DNA of 20,189 bases. Origin: Eubacterium sp. (lineage in GTDB: Bacteria > Bacillota > Clostridia > Oscillospirales > Acutalibacteraceae). A program made the position numbers and the translations under genes. The stretch spans positions 1-20,189 of the forward strand of contig JAILGO010000061.1 of the NCBI GenBank assembly GCA_024696725.1. Reading direction: 5' to 3'. The notes under the pieces were generated by a model that was given only the letters and a program-made list of their open reading frames with translations, was not told where the DNA came from and searched no databases. Of this stretch, positions 1,790-9,698 are shown piece by piece. Numbering within the stretch: the first letter of the stretch is position 1; each line of letters opens with the position of its first letter.

Positions 1790-1818
1790 TTGATTTATAG
1801 TATAAGTTATGCTATAAT
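1790..1818 (+). promoter_or_regulatory. Sigma-A promoter of the HAD-Nudix/nifS/thiI operon
   Basis: TTGATT (1790-1795) and a perfect TATAAT (1813-1818) have a 17 bp spacer. The predicted start is near 1825, so the TTG at 1822, which could open the frame 9 codons earlier, is not in the mRNA. The ribosome site AAGGAG (1837-1842) points to the ATG at 1849. Confidence 0.8.
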
Positions 1819-1848: not shown

Positions 1849-3033
1849 ATGTACAAGGCTGTAATTCTTGATTTTGACGGTACCGTCTGCGATACGGGAA
1901 AAGGCATTAAAGAAAGCGTAAGATACGCGCTCGACGCGTGTTCGGTAAGCTACGACGCCGGGGAGGATTTATCCTTCGTAATAGGTCCGCCGCTGCTCGT
2001 AATGTTTCAGGAGCATTACGGCGTAAGCGTCACCGAGGCGGAGGAGCTTGTAAGAAAATACCGCGAGCATTATACCAACACGGGTATATACGAATCCGAG
2101 CTTTACGGAGGTATCGAGGATATGCTCATATCGCTTAAGGAGGAGGGGCTGCTTCTCGGTATAGCCTCCTCAAAGCCCGCGAAGTACGTTACGCTTCTTC
2201 TCGAAAAATTCAATCTTCTTAAATACTTTGACTCGGTATGCGGCGTTGACTTCAAAACCGACTGCGAGCCGAAATCGAGCATTATCGCCCGTTGTATCGA
2301 GGCTCTCGGCTGTACGGGAAACGAGGTTTTCATAGTCGGCGACAGAGCCTACGACATAAGCGGTGCGGCTGAAAACGGCGCCGACAGCGCAGGCGTTCTT
2401 TGGGGTTACGGAAACAAGTTCGAGTTCATCGAGGCAGGCGCGAAGTATATCGCGGAAAAGCCCGGGGACATTCTCGCAATAGCGGAGGGCTTCTACGAGC
2501 AAACCGAGGCGGTCAACGTGATTTTCGACGGAAGAATTCTTACCGTTCACAACGACGACGTTACGCTCTGTGACGGAACCGAAACAACACGCGAATGCGT
2601 CGACCATCCGGGCGGCGTTGCGGTTATCGGAATTACGGACGAGAACGATATTCTTCTCGTAAGACAGTTCCGTTATCCGTATAAAGAAACCATATACGAA
2701 ATACCCGCGGGAAAGGTTGAAAAGGGCGAGGACCCGTTCGAAACGGGAAAGCGCGAATTCAGGGAGGAGTGCGGCGCGATAGCCGAAAACTACTTCTCAC
2801 TCGGCGAGATTTACCCCTCTCCCGGCTACACTAACGAAATTATCCGGCTTTACGGCGCGACGGGAATCACCTTTGAAAATCCCGAGCCGGACGCCGACGA
2901 GTTCCTTACCGTTAAGAGAATGAAGCTCGGGGAAATCGTCGAAAAAATAATGAGCGGCGAAATCAAGGACGCAAAAACGGTCGCTGCGGTATTTAAGTTA
3001 AAGGAAAAGCTTTCAAAAAATGATTTATCTTGA
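1849..3033 (+). CDS. Two-domain HAD phosphatase-Nudix hydrolase fusion
   Basis: The 394-residue protein joins two enzymes in one uninterrupted frame. Residues 1-212 are a HAD hydrolase of the phosphoglycolate-phosphatase type: motif I DFDGT (nucleophile Asp8, acid Asp10), a helical cap at about 18-90, motif II Ser107/Ser108, motif III Lys142, motif IV GDRAYD (Asp165, Asp169). Residues 219-394 are a Nudix hydrolase of the ADP-ribose pyrophosphatase type, with a complete Nudix box GX5EX7REUXEEXGU at 288-310. Known ADP-ribose pyrophosphatases yield AMP and ribose 5-phosphate, either of which a HAD domain might dephosphorylate; that coupling is inference. The start is ATG 1849, set by the ribosome site. 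It is the first gene of an operon, and its last 14 bases overlap the next gene. Substrate specificity cannot be read from sequence. Confidence 0.93.
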   Translation: MYKAVILDFDGTVCDTGKGIKESVRYALDACSVSYDAGEDLSFVIGPPLLVMFQEHYGVSVTEAEELVRKYREHYTNTGIYESELYGGIEDMLISLKEEGLLLGIASSKPAKYVTLLLEKFNLLKYFDSVCGVDFKTDCEPKSSIIARCIEALGCTGNEVFIVGDRAYDISGAAENGADSAGVLWGYGNKFEFIEAGAKYIAEKPGDILAIAEGFYEQTEAVNVIFDGRILTVHNDDVTLCDGTETTRECVDHPGGVAVIGITDENDILLVRQFRYPYKETIYEIPAGKVEKGEDPFETGKREFREECGAIAENYFSLGEIYPSPGYTNEIIRLYGATGITFENPEPDADEFLTVKRMKLGEIVEKIMSGEIKDAKTVAAVFKLKEKLSKNDLS

Positions 3034-4150
3034 TAACAGCGCAACCACAAGACCCGAAAAGGCGGTTGCGGATAAGGTATACGAAATGCTTACGGAGCGC
3101 TTCGGCAATCCGTCAAGCTTTCACAGAGCGGGGCTTGACGCCAACGCCGAGATAAGAGGCGCGCGAAACGCGCTCGCCGACGCGCTTTCGTGCGACGACG
3201 GGGAAATATATTTTACCTCGGGCGGCACGGAGGCTAATAACCTCGCAATCTTCGGCGCTGTACAGGCTAACCGCCGTAAGGGCAGAAGAATCGTCACGAC
3301 GGAAATCGAACACGAAAGCGTACTCGAGGCGGTAAGAGCGCTCGAGCTTGAGGGCTACGAGGTCGTAAGGCTTTCGCCCGACGGCGGGGGAAACATTTCG
3401 CCCGAGCAGATTTACGGGGCGGTAAACGCCGACACTATTCTCGTCAGTATGATGTACGTAAACAACGAAGTCGGCTCAATTCTTCCCGTGACGGAAATAA
3501 AAAAAGCCGTAGCGAGAGCGAAGGCTCCCGCGCTGATTCACGTTGACTGCGTTCAGGCGTTCGGAAAAATTCCCGTTAAGCCGAAAAAGCTCGGCGCGGA
3601 TTTAGTAACGGTAACGGCGCATAAAATTCACGGTCCGAAGGGCGTCGGCGCGCTTTACATAAAAAAAGGAGCGCGGATTGTTCCCCGTCAGTACGGCGGC
3701 GCTCAGGAAAATAAAATCCGTCCCGGCACCGAGGCGGCTCCGCTTATTGCCGGCTTCGGCACGGCGGTCGGACTTATACCCGACCTTAAGGAGCAGAGCG
3801 AAAAAATTAAAGCGCTGAACGCCTATACGAAAAATGCGCTCTTTAAAATTGACGGGCTTAAATTCAATTCCCCCGAAAACGCGAGCGATTATATATTAAA
3901 TGTTTACGTTCCTACTTTTATGACGAGCCAGACCGTCGTTCAGCACCTTTCTTCCGAATACGGTATCTGCGTTTCAAGCGGCTCAGCCTGCGCTAAAGGA
4001 AAAAAGAGTCACGTGCTTACAGCTATGAAGCTCAGCGACAGCGTAACCGAACATTCTATAAGGATAAGCTTTTCGCGCTTCAATACCGAAAAAGACGCCG
4101 ACGCGCTTTTCCGCGCGTTAGAGGAAACCTGTAAAAAATACCCTCGTTAA
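3020..4150 (+). CDS. Cysteine desulfurase, NifS/IscS-like partner of ThiI
   Basis: This is a 376-residue PLP enzyme that removes sulfur from cysteine to form an enzyme persulfide and alanine. It shows the N-terminal YLDNSATT, TSGGTEANN (67-74), the conserved His in EIEHES (His98), HVDCVQA (174-180), the PLP lysine in TAHKIHGPKG (Lys202), and the mobile-loop catalytic cysteine in SSGSACAKGKK (Cys324). The start codon lies within the end of the HAD-Nudix gene, and thiI follows after 10 nt. In Firmicutes such as Bacillus subtilis a dedicated desulfurase (NifZ) next to thiI supplies sulfur for tRNA 4-thiouridine, and the same job is the best inference here. No iron-sulfur scaffold gene is nearby. 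Confidence 0.95.
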   Translation: MIYLDNSATTRPEKAVADKVYEMLTERFGNPSSFHRAGLDANAEIRGARNALADALSCDDGEIYFTSGGTEANNLAIFGAVQANRRKGRRIVTTEIEHESVLEAVRALELEGYEVVRLSPDGGGNISPEQIYGAVNADTILVSMMYVNNEVGSILPVTEIKKAVARAKAPALIHVDCVQAFGKIPVKPKKLGADLVTVTAHKIHGPKGVGALYIKKGARIVPRQYGGAQENKIRPGTEAAPLIAGFGTAVGLIPDLKEQSEKIKALNAYTKNALFKIDGLKFNSPENASDYILNVYVPTFMTSQTVVQHLSSEYGICVSSGSACAKGKKSHVLTAMKLSDSVTEHSIRISFSRFNTEKDADALFRALEETCKKYPR

Positions 4151-4160
4151 AGGAAATAAT

Positions 4161-5333
4161 ATGAAAGAAATTATACTTATTAAAAACGGAGAGCTTGTAC
4201 TCAAGGGGCTTAACCGAAACACCTTTGAGGATATACTTATTAAGAATATGAAAAAGGCGCTTCGCGATATCGGAGAATTTACTTTCACGAAATCGCAGTC
4301 GACGATTGTCGTAGAGAGCGCCGACGGCGAAGCCGACCTTGACGACGCTACCGACGCGCTCAGCCGCGTTTTCGGAATAGTTGCGCTTTCGCGCGCCGCC
4401 GTCGCCGAAAAGGATATAGAGGAGATAAAAAGAACCGCGAGAGAATATCTCGCCGACGAGCTTTCGCTCGCTTCGACCTTTAAGGTTGAGGCTAAAAGAA
4501 GCGACAAGAAATTTCCGCTTAAATCTCCCGAGATTTCAAGGGAGCTCGGCGGCTATCTTCTTTCAAAGTTCAATCACCTTAAGGTCGACGTTCATAATCC
4601 CGACGTTACGGTTACCGTTGAGGTCAGGGATTCGCACGCGTTTATAAGAGGCAACAATATCAAAGGCGCGGGCGGTATGCCCGTTTCGACGAGCGGACGC
4701 GCCGCGGTGCTTATCAGCGGCGGTATAGATTCGCCCGTTGCCGCATATATGATGGCAAAGCGCGGAATAGAGCTTGTTGCCGTTCACTTCGCTTCGCCGC
4801 CGTATACGACGGAGCTTGCGGAGCAGAAGGTATTTGAGCTTTTACATAAGGTAGCGCGTTACAGCGGACCGATAACGACCTACGTCGTACCGTTCACCGA
4901 GCTTCAGGAGGCTATAAGAGACAAGTGCGACGAGCAGTATTTCACGATAATAATGCGACGCTTTATGATGAAAATAAGCGAGATTCTCGCGCGGCATCAG
5001 AACTGCTCGGCGCTGATTACGGGAGAAAGCGTAGGACAGGTCGCGAGCCAGACGATATATGCGCTCGGCTGTACGGACGCCGCAACCGACCTCCCCGTAT
5101 TCAGACCGTGTATCGGTATGGACAAGGTTGAAATCGTTAATATTTCAAGAGATATCGACACCTTTGAAACCTCTATACAGCCGTACGAGGACTGCTGTAC
5201 CGTATTCACTCCCAGGCACCCGAAAACGAGGGCAAAGCTTGAGGAGGTAACCGAGGTTGAAAAGGCTATAGAAAACGCCGACGAGCTTATTAAAAGAGCT
5301 GCCGACGGCGCGAGAAAAACAGTAATTAAGTAG
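4161..5333 (+). CDS. thiI: tRNA 4-thiouridine synthetase ThiI (no rhodanese domain)
   Basis: This 390-residue protein installs 4-thiouridine at tRNA position 8. The N-terminal ferredoxin-like and THUMP region occupies roughly residues 1-170, followed by a PP-loop ATP pyrophosphatase domain with SGGIDSP (186-192), which adenylates U8. A conserved cysteine pair in PYEDCCTVF (Cys345-346) matches the position of the Escherichia coli Cys344 region. The enterobacterial C-terminal rhodanese domain is absent, the normal short form in Firmicutes, where the adjacent cysteine desulfurase passes sulfur directly. AAAGGA sits 6 nt before the ATG. It is cotranscribed with the desulfurase upstream and the membrane protein downstream. 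Confidence 0.97.
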   Translation: MKEIILIKNGELVLKGLNRNTFEDILIKNMKKALRDIGEFTFTKSQSTIVVESADGEADLDDATDALSRVFGIVALSRAAVAEKDIEEIKRTAREYLADELSLASTFKVEAKRSDKKFPLKSPEISRELGGYLLSKFNHLKVDVHNPDVTVTVEVRDSHAFIRGNNIKGAGGMPVSTSGRAAVLISGGIDSPVAAYMMAKRGIELVAVHFASPPYTTELAEQKVFELLHKVARYSGPITTYVVPFTELQEAIRDKCDEQYFTIIMRRFMMKISEILARHQNCSALITGESVGQVASQTIYALGCTDAATDLPVFRPCIGMDKVEIVNISRDIDTFETSIQPYEDCCTVFTPRHPKTRAKLEEVTEVEKAIENADELIKRAADGARKTVIK

Positions 5334-5341
5334 GTGAGATT

Positions 5342-6553
5342 ATGGGCTACGACCCCGAACTTGAAGAAATACTTAAATCAATTAAGAACGATAAAAAAGC
5401 AGGCGAGCATAAAACCGAGCCTATTAATCTTCCTCCGCCGAAGCCGAGATATGATTTCACTCGGGAAAATCCTGAGCCGATACCCGAGCCGGAGCCTGAG
5501 GAAAGCGCGTTCACCGAGGAGCTCAGAACCGAAAGCGAACCCGAGGCGGCTCCCGTAGCGGTAACGGTTGAGGAGGAAATAATAACTCCCGTATCCGAGG
5601 AAACTCAAAGACTCGCTAAAAAAATCTCAGGCGAGTTCGAAGAAGCTCCCCCGAAGAGAGAGAAACCCGCGAAAGCGGAAAAGCCGAAAAAGGAAAAAGC
5701 AAAAAACGACGGCGCAAAGGTTGCTCTTCCCGTCGCGGTTATTTCCGTAATCATAGCGCTTTGCGTATGTATAGGCGGCTTTGTATTCGGTCACGGCTTA
5801 TACGTAAAGAAATACGAGGCGAAGTACGGAATATCCTTCCCGAAGGGAATACCGATGGAGCTTTGCGATTATTACGGACAGAATCAGAGCCTCGCGGGAA
5901 GCGTGAGCTTTAAGGACTACGGAGACGATATCCCCGTTTACAGCGAGCCTCCCGAGGACGGTGCGCTCTTTGAAAAGGGCAGCAGCGTAAAAGAGGAGCA
6001 GCATTACAGAGCTATCGCGCTCAATAACGGCGAGGCGGATATCGAAGCGCTCTATAAGGACGGAGAGAGCTTTGTAAAAGCGTCTCAGCAGTTTACTTTT
6101 AAAACCGTTTACGGCGAAAATGAAAAGTATCAGGTTATCGCGGCGTATATTATAAACACCCGTCCCGAGGACGATAACGGCTACGCCTTTCCGTATAACT
6201 GCTACGGAAACTTCACCCCGAAGAGCTACCGTCATTATCAGGATACGATTAAATGCAGAAGCATTTACAAGACGGGATATAAAATCACTCCCGAGGATTA
6301 CTGTATGACGGTAAGCGTTCCGACGGATATTATGCCCGACTTCCGTTTTGTAATAGTCGGCGTAAAGCGCGAAAAGCCCGAAAGGATAACTCAGACAAAG
6401 CCGAACGACAGAGTTCGTTATCCGCAGGTTTACTGCGACAAGCTCGGCGTTCACAATATCTACGCGCAGTTCTCGTCAAAGTGGTTCCCCGAAATCGTAA
6501 CTAACGAAAACACGGGCGACACAAGGCAGCTCAGCGCAGAGGATTTTCAATAA
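5342..6553 (+). CDS. Membrane-anchored sortase-B-like protein lacking catalytic residues (pseudo-sortase)
   Basis: This 403-residue protein has a charged, Pro/Glu/Lys-rich cytoplasmic region (about 1-125), one membrane helix (about 127-152) and an extracellular domain. That domain follows the order of class B sortases: a QNQSLAGSV strand (cf. NPDTVGW), IPVY, GALF (cf. GTIF), YQVIAAYIINT...DDNGY, RSIYKTG, then EDYCMTVSVP and PDFRFVIVGVKRE. Where sortases carry the YGHN histidine this protein has ALNN (Asn228), and where the TLSTC cysteine is expected it has TVSVP (Pro327); the arginine-like residue Arg335 remains. Transpeptidation is therefore unlikely, and a binding or structural role is inferred. 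The assignment rests on motif order, not a search. It is the last gene of the thiI operon (8 nt gap, ribosome site AGGTGAG) and is followed by a terminator. Confidence 0.6.
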   Translation: MGYDPELEEILKSIKNDKKAGEHKTEPINLPPPKPRYDFTRENPEPIPEPEPEESAFTEELRTESEPEAAPVAVTVEEEIITPVSEETQRLAKKISGEFEEAPPKREKPAKAEKPKKEKAKNDGAKVALPVAVISVIIALCVCIGGFVFGHGLYVKKYEAKYGISFPKGIPMELCDYYGQNQSLAGSVSFKDYGDDIPVYSEPPEDGALFEKGSSVKEEQHYRAIALNNGEADIEALYKDGESFVKASQQFTFKTVYGENEKYQVIAAYIINTRPEDDNGYAFPYNCYGNFTPKSYRHYQDTIKCRSIYKTGYKITPEDYCMTVSVPTDIMPDFRFVIVGVKREKPERITQTKPNDRVRYPQVYCDKLGVHNIYAQFSSKWFPEIVTNENTGDTRQLSAEDFQ

Positions 6554-6556
6554 ATT

Positions 6557-6583
6557 AAAACCCCACGTTTACCGTGGGGTTTT
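6557..6583. terminator. Bidirectional intrinsic terminator
   Basis: CCCCACG (6561-6567), loop TTTAC, CGTGGGG (6573-6579), flanked by AAAA and TTTT. It lies between two convergent genes whose stop codons are only 32 bp apart and can end both transcripts. Confidence 0.9.
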
Positions 6584-6585
6584 AT

Positions 6586-8460
6586 TTATTCCGTAATATC
6601 CGAGGGATGATAGGTCGGGATATACTTCTGAAGAACGTCTCTTACGTTATCGTTATTAATGCTTTCGAGAGCTTTTAGCATTTCCTCAAACCTGTTTCCG
6701 TCTATTTCAAGCGGCAGGTTAACGTAGATTTTTTCGTTAGCCGTGGTTTCCCTCGTTTCCATTTCGGAGACCATGGAAAGCTCCTCATAGAGCTTTTCGC
6801 CCGGACGGAGTCCTACGAATTCAATCGGGATTTCGTCCTCGGTGAAGCCGGAAAGGCGGATAAGGTTTTTAGCGAGGTCGACAATCTTAACGGGCTCTCC
6901 CATATCAAGAACGAAAACCTCTCCTCCCTTTGCAAGACCGCCCGCCTGACATACGAGCTGAGCCGCCTCGGGAATAGTCATAAAGTATCTTGTAATATCG
7001 GGGTGAGTAACCTTAACGGGTCCGCCCTGCTCTATCTGTTTTTTGAAAATCGGAATAACCGAGCCGTGCGAGCCGAGAACGTTACCGAAACGAACGGCGA
7101 CGTATTCCGTATTCTGAGAAACGCTGTTCATATACTGAACGATAATTTCACAGATACGCTTCGTACAGCCCATTACGTTAGTCGGGTTAACCGCCTTATC
7201 GGTAGAGAGGATAACCATTTTACCGACCTTATACTCGTTACAGAGAAGAGCTACGTTATACGTTCCGAATACGTTGTTTTTAACTGCCTCGCAGGGACTG
7301 TCCTCCATTAAAGGAACGTGCTTATGCGCCGCAGCGTGAAAAACGACCTCGGGATGAAATTCCTCAAAGACCTCGCGCAGTCTGTCGAAATCGCGCACGG
7401 AGCCGATTCTTACCTTAATATCAATCAGTCCGCCGTAACGGTCGTTAAGCTCGTTCTGAAGCTCAAAGGCGCAGTTTTCGTAAATATCGAAAATTACAAT
7501 CGTTTTCGGGTTGTACCTCGCTACCTGAGCGCAGAGCTCCGCGCCGATTGAGCCGCCGCCGCCCGTTACAAGCACGGTTTCTCCGATAAGATAGCGGCAC
7601 ACCTTTTTATCAAGCTTAACCTCGGGACGGGAAAGAAGGTCCGAGATATCGACGTTACGGATTCTTCTGTCCGAGGTTTCGTCGAACATATCCTCAACCG
7701 ACGGACTGATTTTAATCTTACAGCCCGTTTCCATAGCTATATTTATTACCTCGCGCTGTCTTGCCTTGGTAGCCGAGGGAATACAGATTACTATCTGGTC
7801 TATTTTATATTTTTCCGCAAGCTCGGGAATCTGGTCGCAGGTTCCGACGACCTTTACGTTGTTTATTTTTTTACCCTTTTTCTGAGGATTATCGTCTATC
7901 GCGATAACGGGACGTCCGCCCTTAAAGCCCTCGTTTGTAAGCGCGTCAATTACGAAATTGCCCATAAAGCCCGCGCCGACAATCATAACGCGGTTTTTCT
8001 TTCCGCCTTCGTAGGAGCGGAAAACGCGCTTAAAAATCTTAAAGCCCTGACGCGGAATAATAATGCACACAATCAGGAAGAGGAACATCATTATATACGC
8101 GTAAAAAGCAAGATAAAATTTATAGCCGAACGAAAACATCACCCTGTCTATAAGAAACAGCAGTCCCGTTTCAACAAACGCAGCCGCGAGTCCTCTTACC
8201 AGCTCGTCAACGCCCGCATACCTCCATACCGAACGGTACAGACCGAACGCGAAGTTTATTATTACCGCTATACAGCCCACGAGAATAAAGTGGGGATAGT
8301 CGAAATATTTATAGTCGTCTATAAGCAATCTTCCGCCGTTCGTAAACATTACGATAGCGGCGTTACAGGCACAGAAAAGCGCAAAGTCCATAGCCATAAC
8401 TATCGCGTTTTTCAGTATCTTCGTAAACTGATTGCCTTTATAATCTCTGTCTTTTGCCAT
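6586..8460 (-). CDS. Membrane UDP-sugar 4,6-dehydratase, CapD/WbpM/EpsC family
   Basis: The 624-residue protein has four N-terminal membrane helices (about 15-40, 56-75, 90-110, 115-136), a CoA-binding/Rossmann domain (starting near IVGAGFMGN at 160-168) and a C-terminal short-chain dehydrogenase domain. The latter has the NAD motif TGGGGSIGAE (299-308), HAAAHKHVPLME (375-386), and the active-site stretch STDKAVNPTNVMGCTK (419-434), where Met430 replaces the usual Tyr of YxxxK, as is normal in this family. Relatives convert UDP-GlcNAc to a 4-keto-6-deoxy sugar for capsule, exopolysaccharide or glycan synthesis. It acts at the inner face of the membrane. Its ATG overlaps the stop of the upstream CHAP gene (TAATG), implying translational coupling. 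No glycosyltransferases are in the window. Confidence 0.93.
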   Translation of the reverse strand: MAKDRDYKGNQFTKILKNAIVMAMDFALFCACNAAIVMFTNGGRLLIDDYKYFDYPHFILVGCIAVIINFAFGLYRSVWRYAGVDELVRGLAAAFVETGLLFLIDRVMFSFGYKFYLAFYAYIMMFLFLIVCIIIPRQGFKIFKRVFRSYEGGKKNRVMIVGAGFMGNFVIDALTNEGFKGGRPVIAIDDNPQKKGKKINNVKVVGTCDQIPELAEKYKIDQIVICIPSATKARQREVINIAMETGCKIKISPSVEDMFDETSDRRIRNVDISDLLSRPEVKLDKKVCRYLIGETVLVTGGGGSIGAELCAQVARYNPKTIVIFDIYENCAFELQNELNDRYGGLIDIKVRIGSVRDFDRLREVFEEFHPEVVFHAAAHKHVPLMEDSPCEAVKNNVFGTYNVALLCNEYKVGKMVILSTDKAVNPTNVMGCTKRICEIIVQYMNSVSQNTEYVAVRFGNVLGSHGSVIPIFKKQIEQGGPVKVTHPDITRYFMTIPEAAQLVCQAGGLAKGGEVFVLDMGEPVKIVDLAKNLIRLSGFTEDEIPIEFVGLRPGEKLYEELSMVSEMETRETTANEKIYVNLPLEIDGNRFEEMLKALESINNDNVRDVLQKYIPTYHPSDITE

Positions 8461-9698
8461 TATTCAGACTGCTCCTCAACTTTTCTTCTGCTTCTGATTT
8501 TGCGGGATACCGCCTTAACTGCAAGAATTGAAAACGATAAAGCCGCGGTAACGCCTATAATGCCGAGCGGTATAATATAGTCCTTTTTATGAGAGGCGAG
8601 CTTTTCGATATTAATTCCTATCTCCGCAAGCTGCTGCTCTCTCGTTTTAATAAGCGGCTGAGTCGGTGCCGTAGTAACGTTACCGCCGCCGAGCGGAGTC
8701 TTACGCGTTACCTCGGCGGTATTAGCGCCGACGGTGAACTCGCACTGACGGTAAATCTCGTCGTTTGCGCAGACGACAACCGTCGCCGTACCCTCTCCCG
8801 TTGCGGTAATAACACCGCCGTCGGAAATCTCGATAATATTTTCCTCGTCACAGAAATAGCCTACCACCGCGCTCGCGCCCTTCGGCTTAACCGAATAGTC
8901 AAGCTCGACGCTGTCGCCGATTTCAAGCTCGGTAGTCGCGGCGTGGATAGTCATATCCTTAGCTACGACGGGCGGCTTAGTAGTCGACTCGGTCGTCGTT
9001 TCGGTCGTCGTTTCCTTTTTAGTCGTGGTTTCTTTTTTTGTAGTCTGCTGTCTTGCCGTCGTCTGCTTTTTAGCGGTTGTCGGCGCTTTAGTCGTTGCAG
9101 CAGTCGTCGCCTTTGTCGTATCCTCGTCGCCGCCGCTTCCGACAGCGCTCCAGTTGGGAGCGCCGTAGCCGAGTATTGAGCTTACGTTGGCGTACGGCTT
9201 CGAGCCCGAGGAGTTATAGCTTTTTGCCTTAACCTTACCCGAGCAGTTACCCTCTATAGTATAGACCGTGCCGCCCGAATAGGAGCTTACTATACCGACG
9301 TGCTGAGCCGAGCCGTTCCCGCTCCAGTCGAAGAAAACGAGGTCGCCCTTCGACGGCGTATAGCCCGAGCCTCTTTCGTGGTAGCGTCCCTTATTCTGAT
9401 ACCAGCTAATCATAGAGTTACAGTTTCCGCCGCTCGGTACGATATTAGCGTAAAGCTTTACGCCGAGGCTTTCGCCCGCCTTGTTAAAGCACCAGAGCGC
9501 AAAGGTAGTACACCAGCCGCCCTGATAGCCGTACCATTCGCCGTATTTTGAATATGTACTCGAACCCTCGTAGCCGATTTCATTTTCCGCTATTGAGATT
9601 ACCTTCGACTTCATTTGCCCTACCGTCGCGGCGTACGCGTTAAGCGGCGCTGCGGCAAGAAGCGTCAGGCAAAGTATAACCGTAATTATTTTTTTCAT
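8460..9698 (-). CDS. Secreted CHAP-domain protein with Thr-rich linker, Ig-like domain and C-terminal anchor
   Basis: The 412-residue protein opens with a signal peptide (about 1-23). A CHAP amidase/peptidase domain follows at about 30-180: GGWCTTFALWC carries the likely nucleophile Cys63, QHVGIV the His133, and YTIEGN the third residue (Glu149 or Asn151). A threonine-rich linker (about 194-242, runs of TTTK and TTTE) leads to a Big_2-like Ig domain (about 245-325), and a membrane helix (about 373-395) with a basic tail ends it. CHAP domains commonly cleave peptidoglycan cross-links, so this is a likely membrane-tethered wall hydrolase; some relatives are inactive. There is no LPXTG. It is the first gene of an operon with the UDP-sugar dehydratase. 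A ribosome site AAGGAAA precedes the ATG. Confidence 0.9.
   Translation of the reverse strand: MKKIITVILCLTLLAAAPLNAYAATVGQMKSKVISIAENEIGYEGSSTYSKYGEWYGYQGGWCTTFALWCFNKAGESLGVKLYANIVPSGGNCNSMISWYQNKGRYHERGSGYTPSKGDLVFFDWSGNGSAQHVGIVSSYSGGTVYTIEGNCSGKVKAKSYNSSGSKPYANVSSILGYGAPNWSAVGSGGDEDTTKATTAATTKAPTTAKKQTTARQQTTKKETTTKKETTTETTTESTTKPPVVAKDMTIHAATTELEIGDSVELDYSVKPKGASAVVGYFCDEENIIEISDGGVITATGEGTATVVVCANDEIYRQCEFTVGANTAEVTRKTPLGGGNVTTAPTQPLIKTREQQLAEIGINIEKLASHKKDYIIPLGIIGVTAALSFSILAVKAVSRKIRSRRKVEEQSE

What the first reader, a model, noticed from the sequence alone, without database searches (positions are those of the whole stretch)
5342..6553. A sortase-B fold without its catalytic His and Cys, carried in a tRNA-thiolation operon
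The extracellular half follows class B sortase landmarks in order, ending in a strand matching the TLSTC...RFVVVARxxR region, but reads TVSVP (Pro327 for Cys) and ALNN (Asn228 for His). The protein also has a long Pro/Glu/Lys-rich cytoplasmic tail and one membrane helix. An inactive sortase with a cytoplasmic extension could be a membrane receptor or assembly factor for surface proteins. Its position as last gene after nifS-thiI is unexplained. The sequence motifs are seen; family knowledge gives the expected residues; function is inference.
Basis: partly seen in the sequence, partly recalled or inferred. Interest (0 to 1): 0.7.

Follow-up and report, generated by a model that had tools for sequence, protein, structure and literature searches.

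The report
Dead sortase from tRNA-sulfur operon
This gene makes a membrane protein shaped like the enzyme that fastens proteins to bacterial cell walls, but in it and its close relatives the cutting residues and part of the binding groove are gone while the rest is preserved, so it has probably become a non-cutting structural partner.

Summary
ORF 5342-6553 encodes a tail, one membrane helix and an ectodomain that AlphaFold2 models as a class B sortase; the 15 best PDB hits are class B sortases. In 64 of 64 genus homologues the catalytic His and Cys are absent; Arg is kept in 54. A ~15-residue beta2/beta3 loop of the substrate groove is also lost, in this clade only. dN/dS of 0.055-0.158 in eight usable pairs argues that it is maintained.

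The place after thiI is best explained by ancestry: in 46 of 60 loci, one per genus, a sortase of the same group lies in the thiI cluster, with at least one intact active site in 40 of the 46. The linkage also appears in 16 of 137 genomes from other families of the order, a lower bound.

Met on the way: CinA-sortase fusions, active/inactive sortase pairs, inactive sortases with SpoIID domains. My searches found none in print.

Likely function (inferred): a non-catalytic membrane subunit in wall assembly. A sorting-signal receptor is less likely because the groove loop is missing.

The parts
1790..1818 (+). promoter-like site upstream of the four-gene row
   Evidence: consensus scan TTGATT-17-TATAAT with TG, 10 of 12; consensus only
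1849..3033 (+). HAD hydrolase-Nudix fusion, first gene of the row (ORF listed from TTG 1822)
   Evidence: Pfam HAD_2 1.5e-30, NUDIX 2.3e-13
3020..4150 (+). nifS-type cysteine desulfurase
   Evidence: Pfam Aminotran_5 1.7e-69; NCBIfam NifS/IscS models match below their cut-offs
4161..5333 (+). thiI, tRNA 4-thiouridine sulfurtransferase
   Evidence: TIGR00342 396 bits over cut-off 264.5
5342..6553 (+). class B pseudo-sortase with N-terminal tail (the finding)
   Evidence: thiI directly upstream in 63 of 63 testable genus genomes
5354..5398 (+). N-terminal helix of the tail (residues 5-19, ELEEILKSIK type motif)
   Evidence: model helix H5-19, pLDDT about 80; strict motif pattern in 45 of 64 homologues
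5720..5788 (+). membrane helix (about residues 127-149)
   Evidence: hydrophobic stretch seen in the sequence; model helix 128-162
5864..5866 (+). Cys175, conserved cysteine of the ectodomain
   Evidence: 63 of 64
5942..5962 (+). place of the beta2/beta3 loop deletion (approximate)
   Evidence: segment 5-8 residues in 64 of 64 versus 22-28 in 55 of 55 active domains
6023..6028 (+). Asn228-Asn229 in place of the catalytic His
   Evidence: 0 of 64 His at either column
6320..6322 (+). Pro327 in place of the catalytic Cys
   Evidence: 0 of 64 Cys; Pro in 43 of 64
6344..6346 (+). Arg335 at the catalytic Arg position
   Evidence: Arg in 54 of 64
6377..6550 (+). C-terminal extension after strand beta8 (residues 346-403)
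   Evidence: shared with active relatives; matches of the A5 profile to solved SrtB chains stop at positions 182-186 of 228
6556..6584 (.). bidirectional terminator-like hairpin ending the row
   Evidence: 12-pair stem with T tail on both strands

Best explanation
The gene is a maintained pseudoenzyme: a class B sortase that lost its catalytic His and Cys and the beta2/beta3 loop of its substrate groove, but kept the membrane anchor, the eight-strand barrel, the long beta6/beta7 segment and the C-terminal extension. Supported by calculation: fold, loss of catalytic residues, loop deletion, purifying selection. Supported by comparison: it descends from an active class B sortase that sat in the nifS-thiI(-cinA) cluster of an ancestor. 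Inferred: the ectodomain works as a non-catalytic binding or scaffold subunit at the membrane-wall interface, with the N-terminal helix and Cys175 joining it to partners. By analogy with active/inactive pairs in related genera, the partner may be an active class B sortase. I give the pseudoenzyme-and-lineage part about 0.9 and the partner-subunit mechanism about 0.35.
For: Model and Foldseek. hhalign 99.95. PDB profile match to SrtB, E=2.3e-5. His and Cys columns 0 of 64 each. Loop deletion in 64 of 64 plus L132 and L133, in 0 of 55 active and 0 of 13 other inactive domains. Ectodomain dN/dS 0.055-0.158 in eight pairs with dS under 1.5. thiI directly upstream in 63 of 63 testable genus genomes. 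A sortase in the thiI cluster of 46 of 60 loci, active/inactive pairs in 11 of 60. A separate class B-type sortase with intact motifs beside an SPKTG-ending protein and an LCP-like gene in the own genome.
Against: No interaction or phenotype data. The window row holds no active sortase, so the pair analogy is indirect. The gene is dispensable in the genus: no match in 14 of 80 genomes, 9 of 51 near-complete ones. A profile search of those 14 plus G009 and G024 gave only partial matches, in 7 of 16 genomes (4 of the 9 near-complete), in frames of 121-301 aa; these were not read residue by residue. Arg is lost in 10 of 64. The strict N-terminal motif is missing in 19 of 64, some of which keep a close variant and some of which have a different N-terminus. 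The dN/dS pairs share sequences, have no reference gene, and those with the window protein are saturated (dS 2.5-3.1).
Confidence: 0.7

Rival explanations
1. A non-catalytic receptor or decoy that still binds sorting-signal peptides (for example of SPKTG proteins) and hands them to, or hides them from, the active sortase.
For: Own genome has a class B-type sortase with intact motifs beside an SPKTG-ending protein. Arg kept in 54 of 64. The beta6/beta7 segment is conserved.
Against: The loop lost in 64 of 64 corresponds to B. anthracis SrtB residues 107-121 in the HMMER alignment (residues counted from the chain). That stretch holds Arg116 and Phe121, reported as ligand contacts, with Leu106 at its edge (PMC11987632, passages). 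The beta2/beta3 loop lines the groove in S. aureus SrtB (PMC5118464, passages).
Confidence: 0.2
2. A neutral leftover in an operon, on its way to loss.
For: No match in 14 of 80 genus genomes and no full-length copy there by profile; in G041 a transporter-like gene (by eye) follows thiI.
Against: Ectodomain dN/dS 0.055-0.158; eight invariant columns in 64 sequences; presence in three genera, g1, g34 and g71. Five listed matches meet one stop, near the C-terminal end.
Confidence: 0.05
3. An enzyme with a new active site, for example using Cys175 or the less conserved Cys326.
For: Cys175 63 of 64; Cys at column 326 in 26 of 64.
Against: No His column reaches half of the sequences; the best are 30 and 20 of 64. 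Cys175 lies in the helix before strand beta1 (model helix 172-180), not near the ends of strands 4 and 7 where the catalytic residues sit (PMC5118464, passages).
Confidence: 0.1
4. A tRNA-thiolation accessory whose membrane anchoring localises ThiI or NifS.
For: The start overlaps or touches the thiI stop (gap -4 or -1) in 32 of 63 measured loci; conserved tail motif.
Against: In other genera the genes in this place are mostly active sortases, with SpoIID genes behind some, which points to the wall; ThiI works without such partners elsewhere (recalled).
Confidence: 0.15

Closest known systems
Class B sortase (SrtB; TIGR03064), e.g. C. difficile and B. anthracis SrtB
   Same: Fold, order of strands and helices, membrane anchor, Arg position
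   Different: No catalytic His or Cys, beta2/beta3 loop deleted, long N-terminal tail, C-terminal extension, far below the NCBIfam cut-off
Active thiI-linked class B sortases of the same family (L140, L143, L147, L170 and others)
   Same: Gene cluster, C-terminal YPQ..NPY..WYP extension, beta6/beta7 motif
   Different: They keep His, Cys and Arg and the groove loop
Inactive sortases found together with active ones (L149 856 aa, L189 920 aa, L181 1167 aa and others)
   Same: Same cluster, His and Cys lost
   Different: Groove loop kept; some carry SpoIID or CinA domains; they fall elsewhere in the tree, although one origin is not rejected
C. difficile 630 second sortase, a pseudogene with a stop before the Cys (PMC4155245 passage)
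   Same: A sortase that cannot work
   Different: Interrupted gene; the window family is open, widespread and under purifying selection
SipA, cofactor of S. pyogenes pilus sortase (PMC11987632 passage)
   Same: Example of a sortase that needs a partner protein
   Different: Not compared here in sequence or fold

Membership tests
Class B sortase enzyme | sortase beta-barrel with class B helices | tested here: met
   AlphaFold2 block pLDDT 87-98 from residue 151; Foldseek first hits 2oqw, 4ux7, 5yfk, 5b23: E 6e-10 to 4e-9, TM by target 0.63-0.74, by full query 0.35-0.37, rmsd 3.3-9.0
Class B sortase enzyme | catalytic His | tested here: not met
   0 of 64
Class B sortase enzyme | TLxTC signature with catalytic Cys | tested here: not met
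   0 of 64; Pro 43, Asp 11, Lys 6, four others once each
Class B sortase enzyme | catalytic Arg | tested here: met
   Arg335 in the window protein; 54 of 64 homologues
Class B sortase enzyme | score over the curated TIGR03064 cut-off, or a Pfam Sortase match | tested here: not met
   13.8 bits versus 153.75; 19 of 64 members match TIGR03064 at E<=0.01, best 2.5e-9, the window not among them; PF04203 does not hit this gene
Class B sortase enzyme | transpeptidation of sorting-signal proteins | not testable with these tools
   needs an assay
Pseudoenzyme | fold kept, catalytic residues lost, sequence under purifying selection | tested here: met
   the selection estimate rests on close pairs of relatives, the window's own pairs being saturated
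Active/inactive sortase pair | active sortase encoded in the same cluster | tested here: not met
   none in the window row; the own class B-type sortase is on another contig, C111

The most novel reading that the evidence does not exclude
Clostridia of this order encode an undescribed envelope system in the nifS-thiI-cinA cluster, in which class B sortases, pseudo-sortases and SpoIID domains are tethered through a membrane helix to CinA enzymes or other cytoplasmic tails. It would couple nucleotide and tRNA-sulfur metabolism inside the cell to wall building outside. The window protein would be its reduced, non-catalytic subunit, in a row headed by a HAD-Nudix enzyme instead of carrying cinA.
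Probability: 0.25. Interest if true: 0.85.

Novelty: new variant of a known kind. Interest (0 to 1): 0.62.

Why it matters
Sortases are mostly studied as single enzymes. A conserved family of dead sortases, and active/inactive pairs in related genera, would mean that some sortases work as multi-subunit machines. The linkage to nifS-thiI-cinA, up to CinA and sortase in one polypeptide, raises a directly testable question: why a wall enzyme is tied to enzymes of tRNA thiolation and (recalled activity of CinA) NAD-nucleotide turnover.

Tried and rejected
Single-sequence Pfam and NCBIfam gave almost nothing, and Pfam on 64 members gave only scattered weak hits; profiles of relatives were needed. 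A genome-contig scan with the single protein gave one relative, L031, whose contig has the length of G006:C5 and the same match, so it was counted as the same genome as L003. The idea that the N-terminal helix motif is shared with other proteins was checked in 511 mechanical ORFs of at least 150 aa in the genus loci: 31 hits, 30 labelled pseudo-sortase plus one in L063, itself a pseudo-sortase that my blastp labelling had missed; the sample is only the fetched loci. Independent inactivations: parsimony gives five changes on the tree and starred branches force two, but an AU test does not reject one origin (p=0.093; one search was its unfinished first run), so I claim neither. 'CinA lost from the genus' was rejected: CinA is found in 69 of 80 genomes; in the 63 testable loci the pseudo-sortase, not cinA, follows thiI. 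VIA-align could not be used. Literature: searches for pseudosortase, inactive-sortase terms, CinA/sortase/thiI/nifS, thiI with sortase, CinA with class B sortase, and pseudoenzyme with sortase listed 0, 14, 0, 5, 0 and 1 papers; by title and abstract start none is on such proteins, and apart from PMC4155245 none of them was opened. Only open-licence PMC papers are held.

Rows dropped before counts: G009 and G024 (fragments) are among the 66 matching genomes but not among the 64 rows of A1. L001 and L003 were replaced by the window and L031; L063 was added by hand. The tree used 22 of the 64 pseudo-sortases plus 7 and 63 others. A5 uses 40 of the 48 active domains listed. In one search three added sortase ORFs (L148 666 aa, L156, L168) have no active/inactive call.

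Full report
Observation. The ORF at 5342-6553 (403 aa) is the last of four co-directional genes: HAD-Nudix, nifS, thiI and this one. A promoter-like site lies at 1790-1818 and a 12-pair bidirectional terminator-like hairpin at 6556-6584; the scan found 12 promoter-like and 16 terminator-like sites in the region, against means of 4.4 and 7.8 in shuffles. The protein has a Pro/Glu/Lys-rich tail, one hydrophobic stretch at about 127-149, and an ectodomain. That the tail is cytoplasmic follows from the sortase homology and the Lys-rich stretch before the helix; it was not tested.

Fold. Alone, the protein scores weakly: TIGR03064 E=0.027 over residues 241-337, C. difficile SrtB 4ux7 E=0.0064, no Pfam sortase match. 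With relatives the case is strong. 64 genus homologues, one per genome, were aligned (A1 full length, A4 ectodomain). A4 finds B. anthracis SrtB at E=2.3e-5 and S. aureus SrtB at 0.005-0.009. A4 against 40 active relatives (A5) gives hhalign probability 99.95, E=4.6e-38 over 203 columns; A5 itself finds solved SrtB chains at 8e-55. AlphaFold2 from A1, which holds no active sortase, gives mean pLDDT 82.4 and block means of 87-98 from residue 151 on. Its order (helix 172-180; strands 184-190, 196-200, 208-210, 222-226; helices 234-238 and 241-246; strands 250-255 and 260-272; helix 293-306; strands 321-327 and 334-342) follows the beta1 to beta8 order, with H3/H4 and H5, described for C. difficile SrtB (PMC5118464, passages). 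Foldseek against the PDB: 268 matches at E<=10, 113 at E<=0.001. The first 15 rows are class B sortases, led by 2oqw, 4ux7, 5yfk and 5b23 (TM by target 0.63-0.74, rmsd 3.3-9.0); class C sortases follow.

Active site. The Cys column holds Pro 43, Asp 11, Lys 6, and Gln, Thr, Asn and Glu once each; Cys 0 of 64. The His column is Asn228 in two alignments and Asn229 in another; neither column holds a His in 64, and one sequence has a His at column 226. The Arg column keeps Arg in 54 of 64. Cys at column 326, one before the catalytic column, is in 26 of 64. Cys175 is in 63 of 64 and Glu235 in 64 of 64. The best His columns are 359 (30 of 64) and 221 (20 of 64), so no substitute conserved His/Cys pair is seen.

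Groove. The stretch between strands 2 and 3 is 5-8 residues in 64 of 64 pseudo-sortases and 8 in L132 and L133 (sister genera), against 22-28 in 55 of 55 active domains and 21-25 in the other 13 inactive domains. In the HMMER alignment the lost stretch corresponds to B. anthracis SrtB residues 107-121 (numbering counted from the chain). It holds Arg116 and Phe121, reported as ligand contacts, with Leu106 at the edge (PMC11987632, passages). The beta2/beta3 loop lines the groove in S. aureus SrtB (PMC5118464, passages). A plain sorting-signal receptor is therefore not the first choice.

Selection. Of 12 pairs computed, eight have ectodomain dS under 1.5; their dN/dS is 0.055-0.158. Some of these pairs share a sequence, and no reference gene was run. 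The two pairs with the window protein are saturated (dS 2.5-3.1). The tail ratio could be computed for 8 of 12 pairs: 0.111-0.207. The gene is maintained where present. It was found in 66 of 80 genomes of the genus, 42 of 51 near-complete ones. A profile search of the 14 without a match plus G009 and G024 gave only partial matches, in 7 of 16 genomes, in frames of 121-301 aa that I did not read residue by residue.

Gene place. Of the 64 genus genomes, thiI lies directly upstream on the same strand in all 63 that can be judged; L037 begins at a contig end. One search measured 63 gaps, with one genome counted twice (L003 and L031) and L063 not included; L063 also abuts thiI. 32 of these 63 gaps are -4 or -1; starts were picked mechanically.

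Family view. A4 matched 215 of 300 family genomes at E<=1e-10, active relatives included, and ThiI 287 of 300 at E<=1e-60. I fetched thiI neighbourhoods of 60 genera, one per genus, from the top of the E-value-ranked, truncated thiI list. This favours relatives of the window; one of the 60 is G041 of the window's own genus. 46 of 60 have a sortase of this group on the thiI strand within the stretch; 40 of these 46 hold at least one with intact His and Cys, four hold only inactive ones (L132, L133, L145, L166) and two were not called (L156, L168). A separate cinA is present in 23 of 60, 19 of them with a sortase. Fourteen loci show no such sortase; several are cut by contig ends. Of the 63 sortase ORFs examined, 48 are active by His and Cys and 15 inactive. 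In L152, L160, L162, L181 and L190 an active one lies upstream of thiI.

Order view. 147 genomes, 10 of them in the window's family, were searched with A5 and ThiI. The printed A5 list is truncated. It shows 21 genomes with a match 0.86-2.5 kb downstream of thiI on the same strand: five in the window's family, and 16 of 137 elsewhere, in families f4, f9, f15, f23 and f26 of the 25 other families sampled. Their active sites were not read. So the linkage is older than the window's family but far from universal, and the window gene is best read as an inactivated holder of that place.

Other architectures. 12 of 60 loci carry a CinA domain fused to a sortase-like domain by blastp; Pfam confirmed CinA in the six of these that I scanned. 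For L149 (923 aa) the CinA part passes PRK00549 (511 bits, cut-off 379) and the sortase part passes TIGR03064 (174, cut-off 153.75). 11 of 60 loci hold an active and an inactive sortase together. Inactive partners in L149 and L189 carry part of a SpoIID domain (Pfam 1.2e-6 and 1.7e-7, over the cut-off), and L181 a match below it. Of nine further downstream genes scanned, seven match SpoIID, four of them over the cut-off. CinA's activities are recalled, not tested.

Tree. 92 domains, catalytic columns left out: the window clade (22 of the 64 pseudo-sortases plus one each of g34 and g71) is one group with SH-aLRT 99. A second inactive group of ten has 88. The fewest state changes are five and starred branches force two. 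One origin of all inactive forms is not rejected (p-AU 0.093).

Partners in the own genome. Three PF04203 sortases exist. One (contig C111, L192) is class B-like by TIGR03064 (146.9 bits, just under the cut-off 153.75), with YGHN and LSTC motifs, beside an SPKTG-ending protein (seen by pattern and eye) and an LCP-like gene (TIGR00350 59.4 bits, cut-off 62.3). SPKTG is a C. difficile SrtB motif (PMC4155245, passages). Whether the pseudo-sortase touches any of these is unknown.

Mechanism. I commit to a non-catalytic membrane-anchored binding or scaffold subunit of wall assembly. Fold, catalytic loss, groove loss and selection rest on calculations, ancestry on comparison; the partner role is inferred from pairs in other genera (about 0.35). 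Receptor, ThiI-localising and new-enzyme readings remain open at lower probability.

Organism. The nearest named record met is Ruminococcaceae bacterium UBA3751, Oscillospiraceae, with 53% protein identity in its best segment. 'Genus', 'family' and 'order' are the tool's group codes.

Noticed in passing
L149:5170-7941, L189:5151-7940, L163:5578-7977: Full CinA (three Pfam domains) and a Pfam-positive sortase in one polypeptide; CinA fused to sortase-like domains in 12 of 60 loci.
   Followed up: partly
L138, L149, L152, L160, L163, L164, L181, L185, L188, L189, L190: Active and inactive sortases in one thiI cluster, 11 of 60 loci.
   Followed up: partly
L143:7567-9960, L170:6134-8524, L159:1475-3847: Genes after the sortases carry SpoIID domains; L168 (939 aa) has a sortase-like stretch and an end that looks like SpoIID by eye.
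   Followed up: partly
window 1849-3033: HAD-Nudix fusion heads the row in the window clade (also L132-L134; a shorter weaker hit in L157), where 23 of 60 loci have a separate cinA and 12 a fused one; possible replacement of an ADP-ribose-type activity (recalled).
   Followed up: no
window 8460-9698, minus strand: CHAP-domain protein with Thr-rich linker and C-terminal hydrophobic segment (by eye), next to a polysaccharide-biosynthesis gene.
   Followed up: no
L192:189-2823: Own-genome cluster of class B-type sortase, SPKTG-ending protein and LCP-like transferase with a His-rich stretch.
   Followed up: partly
G009 contig C78: In one incomplete genome of the genus a CinA match and partial sortase matches lie on one contig in the same direction.
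   Followed up: no
L053:11337-12233 and L059:2405-3304: An active class B-type sortase lies about 1.5-1.7 kb upstream of the HAD-Nudix gene in two genomes of the genus.
   Followed up: no
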